Source of the DNA: a virus
Reading direction: 5' to 3' (one strand)
DNA length: 40,371 bases
Virus record (IMG/VR): IMGVR_UViG_3300017528_000090
Span: 1-40,371 of that record
A program made the position numbers and the translations under genes. Positions 15,584-29,399 of this stretch are shown piece after piece. The stretch's first letter is position 1; every line of letters begins with the position of its first letter. Below the pieces are notes generated by a model, which was not told the origin of the DNA, did no database searches, and saw nothing but the letters and a program-made list of their open reading frames with translations.

Positions 15584-17104
15584 CTATTCCGTTTTATCCG
15601 TCTTATTGTCAACTACCTTTTGAGTATTTTCTTTGGGTTTAGATTCCTGTGGTGAACCGCCTCCCTTTGTGGGGCTTGTGAATACCAACCCAGCCTTAGC
15701 TGCTAAATCCTTCTCCATCTTTAGTGTGGCAAAGGTTTCCTGGATGTCGGAAGTGTCAGTGTTTTCCTCAAGATAATCCGTGCGCGTTCCTAAACCGCCG
15801 TCAATAGCCGTAAGCGCAGCGGTAATATCGTTCTGAGGGTCAACCCATGACCATCGACGACCACGGAAGCTAGGAGAGTTGAACTTATCGAATTTCTCGA
15901 ATGGGAATGAGGAAAGGGCCTTGTTAAGCATTGAGGATTCCAGCCATGCCTCAAATATCGGCTCCAATAGCCTACGAATCATATCGCCCTGAATCTTTTT
16001 GAACTGCTCGCGCTCCTCAAGCTTTCCGCCTCGCATGGAACTGAAATTCACTTCCGCAAGGTCATCCGTTAATGTGGTATAGCTTACCCCTCCTCCCGCC
16101 GCTACCCCATGCAACTCGTGTTTAACGAAGCCAGCATGTTGAGAAGTTGGATGTTGCGGATCATAAGGAGTAAACTTCATTCCCGGAGGCAATTCATCTT
16201 TCTGTCCTGGTGAGAAGTCGGCCAGAGTGTTTCCATCCTCATCTTTTGGCCCTTGGTAGGTGTCTCCCCTTTCGCTGGTAAAGAATCCGCCTTTGACGGC
16301 TGCTTCACGCGCTGCGTTAAGCTCGGCCTGCTCATATCCATCAAGCATGTTTAGTCGTTTCATTGTGCTGCTCAATGACGGAACGCCGACGCTTTGAGTG
16401 GTTCGCTCCTTGATGAACCAATGAATAATTTCCTCCCTCGGAACGAAATAGCGATAATACGGGAATGCCCCAAAATATTGCTCGCCAGGATGCCTGGCCA
16501 AAAGCCAAAATCCATTCACCTTTCCGGTGTCAGGATTCTTTTCAACTCCCATGAAAATGAAATTACCATTTGGCAGAACGGTTGAATAATTGATGTCGAG
16601 ATAATCAATCTCCAAAAGCTTCAAACGGAATCCCCAATCATTGAGGTTTGCATTGCGCTTTATTTGGACAAGGATTCCTCCGTCACGCAGAGCGGATCGG
16701 AGCGCAAGCTTCTGAACATCTACAAAGTCATCTTCTTCGTTCAGGCAGCAATTAGCCTGCTTGCACCATTTATCCCATGATGCCTTGATTACCCGATTTG
16801 CATAAATATCTGGATTGCCGTTCGGGTCTTGGCACTTCATGCGCAGGCTAATTCCATCATGGCCCAATACATTGTTCTCCATGACGGAAAAGTATTTACG
16901 TGCCCAATCGTTCTCTTGCTCAAGGTCGCGAGAGCGCGATCTAAGCAGCCTGAGATTGTATCTTATGGCAACATCGGCGGTCTGGACGGATGGAACCCAG
17001 TCCTCAGTCAGGCGAGTAATCTGACCGGACTGATAGGAGCGCACAGCCGGTTTGAATATCTTTGCATAACCAAAAGCACCTAAAGCGCGTTGAAGTAGTT
17101 TCAC
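15584..17104 (-). CDS. Lambda-type portal protein
   Basis: 506 residues. Matches the lambda gpB portal family through YNLRLLRSRSRDLEQENDWARKYF, the NNVLGHDGISLRMK section, YQAEL-like clip region and LEPIFEAWLESSM near residue 390. It forms the dodecameric channel at the capsid vertex through which terminase packages DNA. The C-terminus (~470-506) is Lys/Asp-rich and disordered. It overlaps the gpW-like gene by four bases and is followed nine bases later by the protease-capsid fusion. Confidence 0.92.
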   Translation of the reverse strand: MKLLQRALGAFGYAKIFKPAVRSYQSGQITRLTEDWVPSVQTADVAIRYNLRLLRSRSRDLEQENDWARKYFSVMENNVLGHDGISLRMKCQDPNGNPDIYANRVIKASWDKWCKQANCCLNEEDDFVDVQKLALRSALRDGGILVQIKRNANLNDWGFRLKLLEIDYLDINYSTVLPNGNFIFMGVEKNPDTGKVNGFWLLARHPGEQYFGAFPYYRYFVPREEIIHWFIKERTTQSVGVPSLSSTMKRLNMLDGYEQAELNAAREAAVKGGFFTSERGDTYQGPKDEDGNTLADFSPGQKDELPPGMKFTPYDPQHPTSQHAGFVKHELHGVAAGGGVSYTTLTDDLAEVNFSSMRGGKLEEREQFKKIQGDMIRRLLEPIFEAWLESSMLNKALSSFPFEKFDKFNSPSFRGRRWSWVDPQNDITAALTAIDGGLGTRTDYLEENTDTSDIQETFATLKMEKDLAAKAGLVFTSPTKGGGSPQESKPKENTQKVVDNKTDKTE

Positions 17105-17658
17105 GAGAAGGTTGGATTAACGTAGCGGGTCAGGATCTTGCGATTCTTTCCGAATGACTTTTCCTGCGCTATCTCAGCCCTAAGCCAAGCGCGGGATTCA
17201 AGCAACTTGATATGGGTCATGGATGAAATGCTTCTCCCGTTAATCGAATAGGAAACGTCTCGGCGTGCCATTGCGCCGGAAATAACCGCTTCGACAATGG
17301 CCAGAGTCTTTTGCGCCCAGGTCTGATAATCAAGGGTCGATGCCGCCTGCGCGTTGGGTTGTATGACGATTTCATTTTGATAAATGGTGAATCGGTCTGG
17401 TGACAAGCTGACCTCACCTGACATTAGATAAGTCCCGGCGGCCCATGAAGCCGTTGTAGCCGCCGGGATGTTGACGAGAAAGTCGGAACCGTTTGCGGTA
17501 GCGGCTATGTTAATAGCGGCCAATGCAGGGGAGCGAAGATAGTAGTTTAGGGACCAAGTTGTCCCGCTATAATCTGGAAAACTCTTTTGAAAAAGCAGGG
17601 TTGAACCAGCCTCAAATCTTAGCGGTTCAACGAGCGGCACATTCGCAATCAGACTCAT
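17101..17658 (-). CDS. gpW-like head-tail joining protein with extra N-terminal domain
   Basis: 185 residues. Residues ~1-100 form a beta-rich domain (TTWSLNYYLRSPALAAIN, DRFTIYQNEIVIQPNA) like the N-terminal domains of BppU-type proteins. Residues ~108-170 match the gpW pattern: a helix (LAIVEAVISGAMARRDVS), YSINGRSISSM, then a second helix (THIKLLESRAWLRAEIAQE). Lambda gpW plugs the portal and is encoded between terminase and portal, as here. The fused N-terminal domain is not part of lambda gpW. The gene starts 43 bases after a strong terminator. Confidence 0.75.
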   Translation of the reverse strand: MSLIANVPLVEPLRFEAGSTLLFQKSFPDYSGTTWSLNYYLRSPALAAINIAATANGSDFLVNIPAATTASWAAGTYLMSGEVSLSPDRFTIYQNEIVIQPNAQAASTLDYQTWAQKTLAIVEAVISGAMARRDVSYSINGRSISSMTHIKLLESRAWLRAEIAQEKSFGKNRKILTRYVNPTFS

Positions 17659-17695: not shown

Positions 17696-17729
17696 GAATA
17701 AAAAGGCGGCGGGAGTAATCCCGCCGCCT
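17696..17729 (-). terminator. Strong intrinsic terminator inside the virion operon
   Basis: On the minus strand an 11-bp perfect stem (AGGCGGCGGGA / TCCCGCCGCCT) with a four-base loop TTAC is followed by TTTTTATT. All features of a rho-independent terminator are present. It lies 37 bases before the gpW-like gene and after the G-rich element, so transcripts from the terminase side should largely stop here unless anti-terminated. On the plus strand the hairpin is not followed by a T run. Confidence 0.88.
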
Positions 17730-17990
17730 GAATGCCCTAGCTATACACGCCTAACTACAGACTGCCGCGCACTAGCTTACCGAACTCTAACCTACCATGC
17801 CGGTCTTACGACCCGAACCATACCGAACCAAACCCCAGCCCGCCGGACCCCGGCCCGCGCCACCAAACCCAGCCTGACCCCGCCTTACCTTACCGGCCTT
17901 TCGGCCCGCACCATACCACACCCGGCGCGAAGTTTTAGGCCGACTGGCTGCGGCAAGCGGAATTGTTTTGCTGCGTTTCATTTTTTGAAG
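17730..17990 (-). ncRNA. Candidate structured G-rich RNA between terminase and gpW genes
   Basis: Minus-strand reading shows GG doublets recurring mostly every 4-6 bases (for example GGTTT GGTTC GGTAT GGTTC). Two GNRA-capped hairpins lie near 17895-17906 and 17804-17815: GGCC-GAAA-GGCC and GGTC-GTAA-GACC. The stems differ by a compensated C-G to T-A pair and both loops obey GNRA. Four or more GGG runs at ~17825-17880 could form G-quadruplexes. The element ends in the strong terminator at 17696-17729. Together this looks like a 3' or free-standing structured transcript. A 64-codon frame overlaps part of it and is listed separately. Which is functional cannot be decided from one sequence. Confidence 0.45.
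17787..17981 (-). CDS. Possible small Arg/Gly-rich protein with two internal repeats
   Basis: 64 codons, MKRSKTIPLAAASRPKTSRR then two copies of a YGxGRKxGxV motif (YGAGRKAGKV and YGSGRKTGMV). Three of the six base differences between the copies are silent and two of the others conservative, which is compatible with protein selection. Against it, the composition follows from the G-rich DNA, no good ribosome binding site precedes the ATG, and the same differences preserve RNA hairpins. If translated it would be a very basic, nucleic-acid-binding peptide. Confidence 0.35.
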   Translation of the reverse strand: MKRSKTIPLAAASRPKTSRRVWYGAGRKAGKVRRGQAGFGGAGRGPAGWGLVRYGSGRKTGMVG

Positions 17991-18012: not shown

Positions 18013-19929
18013 TCAAGTAAAGCGTTTCATCGTAAATCTGGCAAGCTTTATTTTCTCTTTTGGGTGCGATTTATTTTCCGCCATCGGCGGGGCCATTGGC
18101 TTCGATTTTGCCGCATATAATCTTGCCAATGATGCCATATCGGGATTCAGCAATTCATATAATCCAATCGTGTAAACATAAAGGTCAAGCGCCTCATTGC
18201 GAGCCGCTACCTTAACCCAAACCTTTTGAGGATAGCCATTCACATAGCGCGTGCGCAGTTCCTCGGCGGCAAATTGCTTGTAAAAATCTTCACCGAAACC
18301 GGCATCGACAAGCTGGCCGTCTCCTGTGCGATATGGGCGAGGGAAGTGCATGAAGCGCGGGCCGTGCTCAGGGATACGCAACCGCTCGTGGACGGTGCTC
18401 TTTAATCCATCGGTGCCAACCATCAGCAGGTTAATCCCGCTCTTTTGCAACCGCTCAAGAGCAGGTGGAGCGCCCCGGATGCTGCTGCCCTTGATCGCAA
18501 TGACACCGGGGCAACCGCGAGAGGCTTGCTGCTTGGTTTTCACATATCGATAAACCGGGATAGCGAATGAGGCGGAATCCACCACACCCCCGGTGTCGAT
18601 GCCCATAATCGCAAGCTTGAGTTGCTGCCCGCATGGATGCGCAAAGGATTGTTGAAACCATTCATCAAGCTTCTTCCAGACTTCCGGCTTGTGCGGAGCG
18701 CCGAACAGCCGGCGGAATTGAATCGCCCATGTTTCCTCTGCCAACCCATAGCCAGTGCAAAGGCATTCCAGCCGGTCCCCTTGCACGTCAACAGCGGCCA
18801 CGAGTAAGCAGACATCGGGCGGGAGCATCGGGCCGTATTCTTCCCGGCGCAAAAGCAATGGGTCAACTTCTACCTTCTCCCCCTCATCCTCCCACGTCTC
18901 GGCAAGGAATGTGTTTGTCCAGAACATCAGGGACTCGCGGCCTTTGCTTTTGGCATCGAGGAAACCGACCACGAATTCATGAAGGTAAGAATTGAAATGC
19001 CGCTTCTTCCCCATGATGCGATAAAGACCGTTCAGATGATAGCCGCGCTTGCGTCGATGTGGTTTCAGGGCAATCCATCGGCCAGCCATGACCATACGAA
19101 CCCGCTCGAAATCAGAAAGCTCGGCATGGCAGGACTCGCAGACATATACAGCCTGCTCCGGGTCTGCCCGTTCCGTCTGGTCTGGATTCGGCCAAGTCCA
19201 TTTGACCTGCCGCCATTTTAGCGTTTGCTCGTGCTGGCAGCGAGGGCACCGGCAGAACCAATACCTTTGATCGCTTTCCTCGAATTCCTTTTCGATGCGT
19301 GAAATTCCTTTGAGCGTAGGCGTCGAGGACTTGAAATAAACCGCATCATAAAAACCTTCTGCTCGGCCATCGGCTTGATCTACCGGATCTCCTTCCGTGT
19401 TTGGTTGGTCTGAATCTATCTCATCTTGGAATATCCACTTGCAGGAAACAGCGCGGAGCGAAGCCGGGGAGTTGGCACCTACAATCGTAATCGACCCTCC
19501 GGGGAATTCCTTGGAGTGGATTGTGTTTCCAGCATCCTTGGCGCGGGGTGTTCGCACCTTGTCGCGGAGCGCCGTCGTGTCTCTGAACATCGGAGCCAGG
19601 CTTTTTTTCGACCATCGTTCCGCGCCTTCCCTTGTCGGATATTTTACGAGGATGTTTGCCGGGTTGGAGTCGATGACAAATCCGATGGCGTTATTCATTA
19701 TCTCGGACTTACCCAACCGCTTCGCCCAAATCAGAATTGTTCCACCGTTAGTCGGGTCGGTAAGCCCCTCCATCGGTTCCCGCTGGTATGGCAATCGGTC
19801 GCAACGATAGCGCCCCGGCTCCGGTGACTGCCCACGGCTCATCATGCGATTGGCTTCCGCCCATTGGGCCACGTTAAGGCGCGGTGGGGGGCGGAATAGC
19901 TGGAGGGCTTTGTTAAGGCTTTCGCTCAT
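18013..19929 (-). CDS. Terminase large subunit, GpA type
   Basis: About 638 residues from ATG 19929 (MSESLNKALQLFRPPPRLNV). The frame extends to 20043, but 19929 gives a normal N-terminus and a 17-base overlap with the upstream gene. Matches lambda gpA: adaptor-binding N-terminus, ATPase with IWAKRLGKSE as the Walker A-like loop (~68-77) and IFQDEIDSD as Walker B, a zinc ribbon (CRCPRCQHE, CESCH), and a nuclease domain with AAVDVQGDRLECL and MGIDTGGVVDS acidic residues. It cuts and translocates DNA into the prohead with the Nu1-like subunit. Confidence 0.93.
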   Translation of the reverse strand: MSESLNKALQLFRPPPRLNVAQWAEANRMMSRGQSPEPGRYRCDRLPYQREPMEGLTDPTNGGTILIWAKRLGKSEIMNNAIGFVIDSNPANILVKYPTREGAERWSKKSLAPMFRDTTALRDKVRTPRAKDAGNTIHSKEFPGGSITIVGANSPASLRAVSCKWIFQDEIDSDQPNTEGDPVDQADGRAEGFYDAVYFKSSTPTLKGISRIEKEFEESDQRYWFCRCPRCQHEQTLKWRQVKWTWPNPDQTERADPEQAVYVCESCHAELSDFERVRMVMAGRWIALKPHRRKRGYHLNGLYRIMGKKRHFNSYLHEFVVGFLDAKSKGRESLMFWTNTFLAETWEDEGEKVEVDPLLLRREEYGPMLPPDVCLLVAAVDVQGDRLECLCTGYGLAEETWAIQFRRLFGAPHKPEVWKKLDEWFQQSFAHPCGQQLKLAIMGIDTGGVVDSASFAIPVYRYVKTKQQASRGCPGVIAIKGSSIRGAPPALERLQKSGINLLMVGTDGLKSTVHERLRIPEHGPRFMHFPRPYRTGDGQLVDAGFGEDFYKQFAAEELRTRYVNGYPQKVWVKVAARNEALDLYVYTIGLYELLNPDMASLARLYAAKSKPMAPPMAENKSHPKEKIKLARFTMKRFT

Positions 19930-20251
19930 GCAGATGGAATACGCTTCCCTTGCACATGTGGCTTCGCTCGTCGTTATCTGTAGTGATGTAGCAATTTGGG
20001 CAAACCCATAATTTCGTGTGAATATCGAAAGGCTTTTCCTCAATCACTTCGCGGACGTGAATGCATCCCTGTTCGTGCCGGTTGAATACTTTTTGAGTAA
20101 TGGGGTCAATCCAAAACTCTCTCGGTTCTTCGCGTGATTGAATATCGAAAAGTTTCCATTTTCGAATGCCTTGCATTTTGAAATACTCCCCAACCTTGAT
20201 AGCTGCAAGGCGCACATCTGGCGGTATGGATTCAGTGTTCAATAGCTCCAT
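19913..20251 (-). CDS. Hypothetical protein with CxxC/HxxxC metal site
   Basis: 112 residues starting MELLNTESIPPDVRLAAIKV, between the terminase subunits. The C-terminal third carries CPNC and ...RSHMC, a likely zinc-binding pair. It overlaps the small terminase by 20 bases and the large terminase by 17, so it is cotranslated with packaging genes. Function not recognised. Confidence 0.65.
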   Translation of the reverse strand: MELLNTESIPPDVRLAAIKVGEYFKMQGIRKWKLFDIQSREEPREFWIDPITQKVFNRHEQGCIHVREVIEEKPFDIHTKLWVCPNCYITTDNDERSHMCKGSVFHLHERKP

Positions 20252-24378: not shown

Positions 24379-24663
24379 ATGAACACCCCCAAACTAATCC
24401 AAGCCGAAGTGGTGGAACTACTTAACGACCTACTCGTTGCCGAGAATCGCGCACGAGATGCGATTCAGGATTGCACAAATCAGGCGCAGTGGGACGACTT
24501 TAGGCGCAAGCGGACAAACCTGCTCATCGACTGTGCTGAAAAGGTTCAAGAGTTTTACGACAAGCGGGCCGACGAAAGCCATAGCCCCACAGCTTGGCAG
24601 CGGCAAGCACGGGCAGCGGTTCAGCCGCTCATAAACCAGATTGAACAGGAGACAGCGACATGA
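24379..24663 (+). CDS. Hypothetical helical early protein
   Basis: 94 residues, MNTPKLIQAEVVELLNDLLV followed by an entirely helical, charged sequence. It overlaps the annealing protein gene by ATGA. The 70 bases before it contain no gene and no clear promoter. In recombination modules this slot often holds a partner of the annealing protein, but no motif supports that here. Confidence 0.6.
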   Translation: MNTPKLIQAEVVELLNDLLVAENRARDAIQDCTNQAQWDDFRRKRTNLLIDCAEKVQEFYDKRADESHSPTAWQRQARAAVQPLINQIEQETAT

Positions 24664-25913
24664 ACGAATTGACGCTGACGGAGCCGAGAGGCACTGATGA
24701 AAACGTGGACCTAATGCCGGTTGCTAAAACCGACGTTGCGAAGCCAGCCGAGGCCATGACCCCGGCGCAGGCGAGGATTGACGCCGTGGCTGGGGTGTTG
24801 GCTCGTGGCTATCACGGAGCATCTACCTTGCAGCTTAGCAAAGAGGAAATCGAGGGCTTAAAAGCCGACTTCCAAGACGATGCTTTCAAGCTTGGCGCAG
24901 GTGGTAATGCGGATCTCCTTTACCTTGAACATGCCTTTTTGCGCGACCGCTTCGATTCCGTAATCGGTATGGGCCAGTGGGCGCTGATTCGTTCCCGTCC
25001 GCACTGGGGCGAGGACTTCACGACCCAGAAGGGAGGCAAGGCAACGCGCCTCTATGCCGATTGCGCTTTGCTCGTCCGTGGCTGCCTGGTAGCTGAGGCC
25101 ATCGGTGATATGGTCTATTATCACGGCAACCCTACCCAGAGCTATGGGGATGCCGCAGAGGGGAGCGAAACGGCGGCATTCCGGCGCTGCGCTAAAAAGC
25201 TTGGCGTGGGGTTGCAGGCTTGGAAAAAGGATTGGTGCGAGGGCTGGAAACAGCGGCAACACGGCGTCAGGCGTGCAGACCACCATAATACCGCACAAAC
25301 GCCACAAAAACCCGTCAAACCGGCAACCGCAAGCGCGGAAAAGGCCAATCCTGAGAGTTTAGCGCCTCGCTCGCTGGCAGACCGGATTAAAACCATGCGC
25401 TTGCTCCTGGGTGACATGGAGGAAGTCGCCTTGCAATACCTGCGCAACTTTACCTCAGACGGTTCGGATGCCTCGACGGCATTGATGCCAAATGAGGATT
25501 TGGGCGACTTGAACGAGAACGCGATGAACTACATCGGTGCCCATTGGAAGGAGTTTATGGCGCGGCTTAAAGAGTTTGCTGGTGTTGCGGTTGACGCTAC
25601 GCCGGAAGATGCGCAACCGGAGCCGGAACCAGTTCAACCCGAAGCGGATAATCCAATCACCAACCCCACCATCAAAGGTTGGGTAAAAGTCACCAACAAA
25701 AAGGAGACGAAAAAGAAAGGCACGTTCCGCTATGGCATCGGCATCGGCGTTGCGACGGATATGAATACCGATGAAAAGCTGTTCTGGGCGAATACCTTCG
25801 ACGCCAAATTCATGGATCAAATCGCTGGCCCGCTCAAGGGCAAGCAGATTGTTGCCGAGTATGCGGAAGGCAAATATGGCAACGAGCTTCTATACCTGAA
25901 GGAGGCGGTATGA
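24660..25913 (+). CDS. Rad52/Mgm101-like single-strand annealing protein
   Basis: 417 residues. Residues ~85-200 carry the Rad52/Mgm101-type core: YLEHAFLRDRFDSVIGMGQW, ALIRSRP, RLYADCALLVRGCLVAEAIG, YYHGNPTQSYGDAAEGSETA and AFRRCAKKLGVGLQAW. A Pro/Ala-rich linker, a helical section (~240-305) and a C-terminal beta-rich domain (KGWVKVTNKKETKKKGTFRY to end) that could be an OB-like fold follow. Such proteins pair complementary single strands during phage recombination and replication. No exonuclease partner is recognised next to it. Confidence 0.82.
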   Translation: MNELTLTEPRGTDENVDLMPVAKTDVAKPAEAMTPAQARIDAVAGVLARGYHGASTLQLSKEEIEGLKADFQDDAFKLGAGGNADLLYLEHAFLRDRFDSVIGMGQWALIRSRPHWGEDFTTQKGGKATRLYADCALLVRGCLVAEAIGDMVYYHGNPTQSYGDAAEGSETAAFRRCAKKLGVGLQAWKKDWCEGWKQRQHGVRRADHHNTAQTPQKPVKPATASAEKANPESLAPRSLADRIKTMRLLLGDMEEVALQYLRNFTSDGSDASTALMPNEDLGDLNENAMNYIGAHWKEFMARLKEFAGVAVDATPEDAQPEPEPVQPEADNPITNPTIKGWVKVTNKKETKKKGTFRYGIGIGVATDMNTDEKLFWANTFDAKFMDQIAGPLKGKQIVAEYAEGKYGNELLYLKEAV

Positions 25914-28247: not shown

Positions 28248-28654
28248 ACCCACTAGAGCAAAGAATTGCTATCGCCATCGCACTTGGCTTTCGCTGGCGC
28301 ATCAAGGATTATGGAGCATCCAACAAACAAAGGGTGCTTACCAAAGGAGACGAGGACGGCCCTGCGAAGATGCACGAGCCTCTGCACTGGTCTTGGTTAG
28401 ATTCTGTGCCCGACTTCTTAAACGACCTGAACCAGATGCATGAAGCCGAAGAAACTATGAACGCCGATGAGTGCGTAGAATATGCGCGGCAACTAATGAA
28501 GCATCATCCGACGTATTGCGTGACCGTGCTTGAGAAAGGCGCAGAGCTTGAGGACATCGCTTACCAAACGTGGCAGGTGATTCACGCCACCGCCGCCCAG
28601 AGAGCCGAGTGTTTCCTTCGGGGGAAGGGTCTATGGAAAGATTCTGAGAAATGA
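28244..28654 (+). CDS. Hypothetical early protein
   Basis: 136 residues, MNPLEQRIAIAIALGFRWRI then a beta-like HEPLHWSWLDSVPDFLNDL and a helical second half (CVEYARQLMKHHPTYCVTVL). Such small proteins with a paired Trp stretch are common in phage early regions. ATGA junctions both sides. No family recognised. Confidence 0.6.
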   Translation: MNPLEQRIAIAIALGFRWRIKDYGASNKQRVLTKGDEDGPAKMHEPLHWSWLDSVPDFLNDLNQMHEAEETMNADECVEYARQLMKHHPTYCVTVLEKGAELEDIAYQTWQVIHATAAQRAECFLRGKGLWKDSEK

Positions 28655-28822
28655 AACCCACAATCCAACTACGGGAGGACTTTTGGCTGGTGGCAAGACA
28701 ACTATCGGCTGCCATGCCTTCACGAGGCCGCGACCGTCAATACACCATACCACGAACTAGCGCAACTCTCCCAAGATCTCCACTGGCAACAATGGATCGA
28801 AAGGGCGAGGAAGGAAAAGTGA
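28651..28822 (+). pseudogene. Small protein with apparent +1 frameshift near its start
   Basis: From ATG 28651 (MKPT, ATGA overlap with the previous stop) the direct frame continues 60 codons with an unnatural Arg/Ser/Pro-rich sequence. One base over, the frame reads SNYGRTFGWWQDNYRLPCLH, then EAATVNTPYHELAQLSQDLH and WQQWIERARKEK, stopping at 28822. That looks native but has no start codon. Removing one A near 28663 would join MKPT to it, matching the MKPTNNY start of the gene at 27797. Either an indel, a sequencing error or programmed frameshifting. Confidence 0.5.
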
Positions 28823-28841
28823 AGGAAAAGTGAAGGAAAAG
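28811..28841 (+). repeat. 11-bp tandem repeat carrying ribosome binding site and GTG
   Basis: AAGGAAAAGTG at 28811-28821 and 28822-28832, with a third partial copy to 28841. Each copy carries an AAGGA Shine-Dalgarno-like core and a GTG. Only the second GTG (28830) opens a long frame. The first is followed by a stop three codons on. Confidence 0.75.
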
Positions 28842-29399
28842 CCATCGAAAAAACAGTTAGTTTTGAAGCTTTTGCATGAAGGTCTTTTGCCTGAGGAGAT
28901 TCAAAAACGGCTCCTAGTTTCCAGATCCACGATTAGTCAGGTAGCGCGAGAAAACAAGATTCCGCAACGTAAACCGGGGCAGCCCCCAATAGCTTTTGAA
29001 CCCGCCGTCTTGAAAAGGATTTTAAGCGGAGAGCGCGTTTCCATATTGGCAAAGGAACTTGGCGTATCGCAAGGCGCTATTTACAACCAAAGACGGCGCA
29101 GCGGGGTTATCTTCCCACGCCTACTAAACGGACCGAAGCATCCAGCCGAGAAAAAGAGCCAAATTGAGCTTGCAAGGTCGCTTAAAAATCAAGGATTTAC
29201 CTATAAAGCGATAGCCCAACGGGCGGGGGTGACGCGCCAATACATCCAATGGCTCTTGAGGATACCGAAGCAAAAACTTTCACCCGCCTGCGATCAATGC
29301 GGAAGCCGAAAGCGACTCCAAGGGCACCATCTGGACTATTTGACCGACCAATTCCAAACCCTTTGCGTTTCATGCCACCGGAAAACCCATCTGAAATAA
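28830..29399 (+). CDS. HTH protein with HNH-like zinc module
   Basis: 189 residues from GTG 28830. Three helix-turn-helix-like segments are visible: LLPEEIQKRLLVSRSTISQV, ERVSILAKELGVSQGAIYN and FTYKAIAQRAGVTRQYIQW. The C-terminus is a treble-clef/HNH-like module CDQCGSRKRLQGHHLDYLTD ... LCVSCHRKTH, with two CxxC pairs and a HH. Resembles HNH homing-type nucleases with recruited DNA-binding repeats. It could also be a zinc-dependent regulator. Sits directly before the structured leader of the replication gene. Confidence 0.65.
   Translation: MKEKPSKKQLVLKLLHEGLLPEEIQKRLLVSRSTISQVARENKIPQRKPGQPPIAFEPAVLKRILSGERVSILAKELGVSQGAIYNQRRRSGVIFPRLLNGPKHPAEKKSQIELARSLKNQGFTYKAIAQRAGVTRQYIQWLLRIPKQKLSPACDQCGSRKRLQGHHLDYLTDQFQTLCVSCHRKTHLK

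What the first reader, a model, noticed from the sequence alone, without database searches (positions are those of the whole stretch)
17696..17990. G-rich element with co-varying GNRA hairpins between terminase and gpW genes
In a densely overlapping operon a ~350-base break holds an unusual minus-strand sequence: GG doublets about every five bases, two hairpins GGCC-GAAA-GGCC and GGTC-GTAA-GACC with a compensated pair and GNRA loops, possible G-quadruplex runs, and a strong terminator at its end. The internal compensation and shared spacing suggest an RNA built from duplicated modules, possibly a phage small RNA or a packaging-related RNA.
Basis: partly seen in the sequence, partly recalled or inferred. 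Interest (0 to 1): 0.7.

Follow-up and report, generated by a model that had tools for sequence, protein, structure and literature searches.

The report
Orphan VIPR guide-RNA array in phage
The odd G-rich stretch is a set of RNA guides of the newly described VIPR system, a phage-borne relative of CRISPR that recognises DNA through two letters in every five; here the guides sit alone, without the protein they need, inside the phage's head-assembly genes.

Summary
On the minus strand, 17922-17732 is one unbroken register of 33 pentamers GGYNN. Two 13-nt GNRA hairpins interrupt it, and a strong terminator (17729-17697) ends it. Its chain score is 88, against at most 50 in 2000 shuffles of the element. 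The form matches the vrRNA of VIPR (PMC13142463): GGY/NN repeats whose NN letters specify a DNA target through a 1-nt skip, bound by Vipr, a CRISPR-RAMP homologue. A sequence-only search of IMG/VR for the same hairpin-in-array found 11 other loci. All 11 carry a vipr gene just upstream on the same strand, and the inner stem pairs covary. One such Vipr models as a Csm3/Cas7-like RAMP. In three of these phages the cassette lies among terminase, portal or head genes, as here. The window differs in having no recognisable vipr in its 40 kb. Its array fills a junction that is 3-11 nt in most relatives with the same downstream gene. So this is a vrRNA array, working with a Vipr supplied in trans, or left over from a lost VIPR cassette. 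I found no target for either complete guide. A packaging RNA is not supported; the neighbour is not gpW.

The parts
17908..17922 (-). three in-register units GGTGT GGTAT GGTGC: 5' end of the array, possibly the truncated 3' end of a further guide
   Evidence: register path; in relatives at least about 15 units precede the first hairpin
17895..17907 (-). hairpin 1: G + GGCC-GAAA-GGCC, guide separator
   Evidence: same hairpin in the same register in vipr-linked arrays; folds locally at -11.9 kcal/mol
17815..17894 (-). guide A: 16 in-register units; NN letters AA AA GG CA TG TT GG GG GG CC GG GG TT TC AT TC
   Evidence: 13 of 16 units intact GGY; 13 of the 16 GGY occurrences in the segment lie in one phase
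17802..17814 (-). hairpin 2: G + GGTC-GTAA-GACC, guide separator with compensated pair
   Evidence: identical stem in vipr-linked L216; covariation over 14 hairpins
17732..17801 (-). guide B: 14 in-register units, more degenerate (6 of 14 intact GGY, 13 of 14 with Y at position 3); NN letters AT AG AG TC AA AG GC AG GT TA GT TA AG AT
17697..17729 (-). intrinsic terminator: 11-bp stem, TTAC loop, T-run
   Evidence: -24.1 kcal/mol, z -7.0
17787..17981 (-). 64-codon open frame overlapping the array; most likely a by-product
   Evidence: no Pfam or PHROG match; no tblastn relative among the loci held; no Shine-Dalgarno-like sequence before the ATG
18013..20043 (-). terminase large subunit (GpA ATPase and nuclease), upstream neighbour
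17101..17658 (-). 185-aa head-tail joining protein (phrog_5774), downstream neighbour; not gpW

Best explanation
The element is a vrRNA array: RNA guides of a VIPR system of the subtype whose guides are separated by GNRA hairpins. It would be transcribed leftward with the late genes and end at the terminator near 17697. It holds two complete guides of 16 and 14 pentamers and a 3-unit 5' remnant. In each GGYNN unit the GGY would be held by one Vipr subunit, and the NN would pair with target DNA, skipping one target base per unit, so that the RNA-protein filament blocks transcription of a competitor element. Shown here: the array, its register, the covarying hairpins, and the linkage of the same hairpin array to vipr genes in 11 other loci. 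Taken from the paper: the DNA recognition code and repression. Inferred: that this copy is expressed and active, and that Vipr comes from outside the 40 kb, either from the missing part of the genome, a prophage, or a co-infecting phage. The stated confidence is for its being a vrRNA array of this subtype; that this copy is active is less certain (about 0.6).
For: One register over 33 units, far above shuffles. Position 3 is C/T in 32 of 33 units; positions 4-5 have near-maximal entropy. Form equals the published vrRNA consensus of 9-16 YNNGG units (PMC13142463). A blind search for (GGTNN)6 in IMG/VR gave loci of which 32 hold a Vipr homologue recognised from the SUSP1 gene. A search for the hairpin-in-array gave 9 true relatives, plus 2 from the relaxed search, all 11 with vipr upstream on the same strand. 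Hairpin stem: 100% paired, two pairs with double changes, covariation 0.385 against 0.112 shuffled, 0/500. Vipr of L216 models as a RAMP: pLDDT 85, best PDB matches are Cas7-type subunits of type VII and Csm complexes, Foldseek E 7e-7, Z 12.3. Same niche in relatives: L216 TerL..vipr-array-portal; L214 TerL-portal-vipr-array-head morphogenesis; L213 terminase-vipr-array.
Against: No vipr is detectable in the 40-kb record (best profile hit E=15), and no target was found for either complete guide. Guide B has many imperfect GGY units and the first guide looks cut short, so the array could be decaying. No promoter stands out. Transcription and binding are untested.
Confidence: 0.9

Rival explanations
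1. A decaying remnant: the phage once carried a full vipr-array cassette between terminase and portal, lost vipr and the 5' part of the first guide, and the remaining array has no function.
For: Relatives carry vipr directly upstream of the array in the same kind of niche. Only 3 units precede hairpin 1, where relatives have about 15 or more. Guide B has 6 of 14 intact GGY units.
Against: Guide A, both hairpins and the terminator are intact and in perfect register, which neutral drift would soon destroy. Relatives that do have vipr show similarly imperfect units, for example 8/15 and 9/15 intact GGY (counted).
Confidence: 0.3
2. A protein-coding gene (64 codons) encoding a basic, glycine-rich peptide, with the DNA periodicity as a consequence of its sequence.
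For: The frame is open from an ATG at 17981 to 17787.
Against: The register is 5 nt, not 3, and continues 55 nt past the stop codon. No family match or homologue. Hairpins with compensatory changes occur at the same place in non-homologous arrays.
Confidence: 0.02
3. A structured RNA acting in DNA packaging.
For: It lies between the terminase and portal-side genes.
Against: Relatives are linked to vipr rather than to one terminase type. Terminase relatives that share the downstream gene mostly have a 3-11 nt junction and no array. The 301 nt have no special global fold (z -1.5).
Confidence: 0.02
4. A G-quadruplex or replication-origin-like G-rich element.
For: Several GG tracts with short loops could form two-tier quadruplexes. 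Short GGTWN repeats beside apparent iteron repeats occur in other phages.
Against: Quadruplexes need no fixed 5-nt phase through imperfect units, no pyrimidine at position 3 and no covarying hairpins. No iterons lie nearby.
Confidence: 0.03

Closest known systems
vrRNA arrays of VIPR systems (PMC13142463, preprint 2026; type II examples Escherichia phage SUSP1 and Pseudomonas fulva prophage)
   Same: Tandem GGY/NN units with hypervariable NN, 14-16 units per guide, intergenic, in a phage, several guides in a row.
   Different: Guides separated by a 13-nt GNRA hairpin in register. The main text reports a pseudoknotted tail, staggered arrays, hammerhead-interspersed arrays and single vrRNAs; its supplement could not be read. 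No vipr gene adjacent or anywhere in the 40 kb.
Hairpin-type VIPR loci found here (L207, L208, L209, L211-L216, L273, L359)
   Same: Same hairpin (GGYNC GGGYCGNAAGRCC GGYNN and covariants), same 5-nt register on both sides, vipr upstream; an array-end terminator was detected in 3 of the 5 checked; some in the same packaging-module niche.
   Different: They carry vipr 80-550 nt upstream; the window does not.
Virus-borne mini-CRISPR arrays (PMC6858448)
   Same: A virus carries guides without the effector genes and would rely on an effector from elsewhere to act in virus-virus conflict.
   Different: Different RNA code and effector; the analogy is inferred, and use of a foreign Vipr is untested.

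Membership tests
VIPR vrRNA | Tandem pentamers with conserved GGY and hypervariable NN, 9-16 per guide | tested here: met
   16- and 14-unit guides; position 3 Y in 32/33; 22/33 perfect GGY
VIPR vrRNA | Vipr (RAMP homologue) gene in the locus | tested here: not met
   no hit in the 40-kb record; met in all 11 loci with the same hairpin array. The record may be a fragment. So the window is filed as a vrRNA array, not as a complete VIPR system
VIPR vrRNA | Conserved structured segment beside the variable units | tested here: met
   covarying GNRA hairpin shared with vipr-linked arrays; not the pseudoknotted tail of SUSP1
VIPR vrRNA | Predicted 1-nt-skip target in a competing element | tested here: inconclusive
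   no convincing match in IMG/VR or 84,980 species genomes for guide A, best 24/32; guide B searched in IMG/VR only, 18/28
VIPR vrRNA | Expressed ~100-nt RNA co-purifying with Vipr | not testable with these tools
   needs RNA sequencing and pull-down
Vipr protein (for the relatives) | RAMP fold (RRM core, G-loop) | tested here: met
   L216 Vipr model against PDB: Cas7/Csm3, Foldseek E 7e-7, Z 12.3 over 163 residues
CRISPR array | Near-identical direct repeats with unique spacers | tested here: not met
   only two 13-nt hairpins that differ in sequence; guide letters are spread within pentamers
Known Rfam RNA family | Score above gathering threshold | tested here: not met
   0 hits in the window

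The most novel reading that the evidence does not exclude
A phage carries a vipr-less, late-operon vrRNA array that uses a Vipr protein supplied by a resident prophage or co-infecting phage to silence rivals, or that occupies that Vipr as a decoy: the VIPR counterpart of virus-borne mini-CRISPR arrays.
Probability: 0.3. Interest if true: 0.8.

Novelty: new variant of a known kind. Interest (0 to 1): 0.62.

Why it matters
VIPR was first reported in 2026 and proposed as a precursor of class 1 CRISPR. This finding adds guides separated by a covarying GNRA hairpin, an obvious candidate for a processing or capping handle, which makes guide maturation directly testable. It shows a recurring location among packaging and head genes. 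It also gives a candidate orphan array, which raises the question whether VIPR guides can work in trans between phages.

Tried and rejected
Rfam: no hit. DNA similarity in phages: only short low-complexity or terminator hits. Close relatives of the 185-aa neighbour in IMG/VR: none; terminase relatives at most 41% identical and without a comparable array. The 140-aa, 187-aa, DUF2786 and Mgm101-type window ORFs considered as possible vipr: rejected, no profile match. Target searches: guide A core in IMG/VR (one chance hit, 21/32) and in genomes (28 core hits, best full match 24/32); guide A 3' half in IMG/VR, none; guide B in IMG/VR, two related records, 18/28; guide A peptide against phages, none. 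The three-unit remnant was not searched. Guides of all arrays against all loci held, under 0-, 1- and 2-nt skips: no match of 21/24 or better, so the skip rule could not be re-derived here. Host guess Verrucomicrobiota: no hairpin array in 388 genomes. Hammerhead ribozyme: considered because a GGCC-GAAA-GGCC stem is familiar from hammerheads (from memory), but no core sequence is present and Rfam is silent.

Full report
The window is an IMG/VR virus record. Its leftward late operon reads TerS (20717-20232), TerL of the GpA type (20043-18013), the finding, a 185-aa head-tail joining protein (17658-17101, phrog_5774, not gpW), portal (17104-15584) and a protease-capsid fusion (15574-13631).

Observation. 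The minus-strand sequence 17922-17732 can be read without a break as GGYNN pentamers, with two 13-nt hairpins that fall at the same place in the register: 3 units, hairpin GGCC-GAAA-GGCC, 16 units, hairpin GGTC-GTAA-GACC, 14 units, then a terminator of 11 pairs and a T-run. The chain score is 88, against a mean of 16.6 and a maximum of 49.7 in 2000 dinucleotide shuffles of the element, so G-richness does not explain it. Positions 1-3 are G 28/33, G 26/33 and C/T 32/33; positions 4-5 are near maximal entropy. The 64-codon frame has no family match and no homologue among the loci held, and the 5-nt register runs on past its stop.

What it is. Two classes stand out by eye: short GGTWN runs beside apparent iteron repeats, and long intergenic arrays with variable NN. 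A literature search returned one fitting description: VIPR systems, with vrRNAs of alternating GGY/NN motifs guiding a RAMP-like Vipr protein to double-stranded DNA under a 1-nt skip rule (PMC13142463). From SUSP1 (KT454805) I took the probable vipr (28474-29061 minus), judged from the paper's description of the locus and the arrays flanking it. An iterated profile found Vipr homologues in 32 of the array loci, none of which had been chosen by protein. SUSP1 and the five others scanned against PHROGs all fall in phrog_4652.

Relatives of this particular form. Searching IMG/VR for the hairpin inside an array gave 12 loci, of which 9 are true relatives (L207, L208, L209, L211-L216); all 9 have vipr immediately upstream on the same strand. 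A second search with the two inner stem pairs left free, filtered by array quality and not by pairing, added L273 and L359, again with vipr upstream, and second hairpins in L209 and L212. L207 and L211 are identical in this stretch. One further hit, L206, has a Vipr but a non-pairing hairpin and belongs to another array type. Over 14 hairpins the inner pairs are CG, UA or GC in step, the loops GAAA, GCAA or GTAA; covariation 0.385 against 0.112 shuffled, 0/500. The outer two pairs were fixed by the search, and the 14 rows are not independent events.

The L216 Vipr, predicted from an alignment of 21 relatives (pLDDT 85), matches Cas7-type subunits of type VII and Csm complexes (Foldseek E 7e-7; Z 12.3 over 163 residues), confirming independently of the preprint that the linked protein is a RAMP.

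Place in the genome. In most terminase relatives that share the ~195-aa downstream gene the junction is 3-11 nt; in the window it is 354 nt (for the relatives; window coordinates). In L216 the cassette lies between terminase and portal, in L214 between portal and a head morphogenesis gene, in L213 after terminase. The window's 140-aa ORF 21769-21347 is 46% identical to an L216 protein. The packaging module is thus a recurring site for this subtype.

What is missing. No vipr is found in the 40 kb: phrog_4652 gives no hit at E<=10, and the custom profile gives at best E=15 against 1e-27 to 1e-52 for the other loci searched in that call. In relatives at least ~15 units precede the first hairpin; here only 3 do. 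Either the array lost its vipr and first guide (a remnant, or an array now served in trans), or vipr lies in an unassembled part: the record is linear and its completeness unknown.

Targets. Under the 1-nt skip rule guide A reads AAnAAnGGnCAnTGnTTnGGnGGnGGnCCnGGnGGnTTnTCnATnTC. No match in the window, the loci held, IMG/VR or one genome per species for 84,980 species exceeds 24/32; the collection scans needed an exact 18-base core, so a target with mismatches in the core would be missed. Guide B was searched in the window, the loci and IMG/VR and gave at most 20/28. The three-unit remnant was not searched. This neither supports nor excludes function.

Verdict. A vrRNA array of a hairpin-separated VIPR subtype, with high confidence; its orphan state is the unusual part, and whether it works is open. 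The VIPR preprint's supplement could not be read, so whether the authors list this hairpin subtype or vipr-less arrays is not known; they do say that some satellites targeted by SUSP1 guides encode vrRNAs of their own.

Noticed in passing
L095 (105-kb record), L128 (67 kb), L191 (56 kb), L098, L129, L156, L169: Further GGYNN arrays in viral records with no match to the Vipr profiles; they may be other VIPR types or more orphan arrays. The empty profile search had no positive control.
   Followed up: partly
L085, L087, L097, L117, L150, L190 and similar loci: Short (GGTWN)n runs beside apparent iteron-like repeats, perhaps inside replication-initiator genes; seems to be a different, origin-type use of the same pentamer.
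   Followed up: no
L109:2216-3403: About 15 successive GGTNN arrays, each ending in a near-identical GGTAAGGAATGGTTTAATGAATTTAAT-like tail, directly downstream of a vipr: a very large vrRNA array.
   Followed up: no
L106, around reverse-strand offset 10440: A structured-looking insert (CGGCAAGTGCATTGGCGGGTGCAAGTCCCGCCCGTTGG) between two GGYNN arrays; possible ribozyme or tail element.
   Followed up: no
window 24660-25913: Mgm101-type single-strand annealing protein (Pfam PF06420, E 2e-14).
   Followed up: no
window 17729-17697: A strong intrinsic terminator in the middle of the late operon implies antitermination or a separate promoter for portal and capsid genes.
   Followed up: no
PHROGs phrog_4652: This family of 'unknown function' corresponds to Vipr (six of six Viprs scanned match); its control rings in Caulobacter vibrioides and Thermotoga maritima.
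   Followed up: partly
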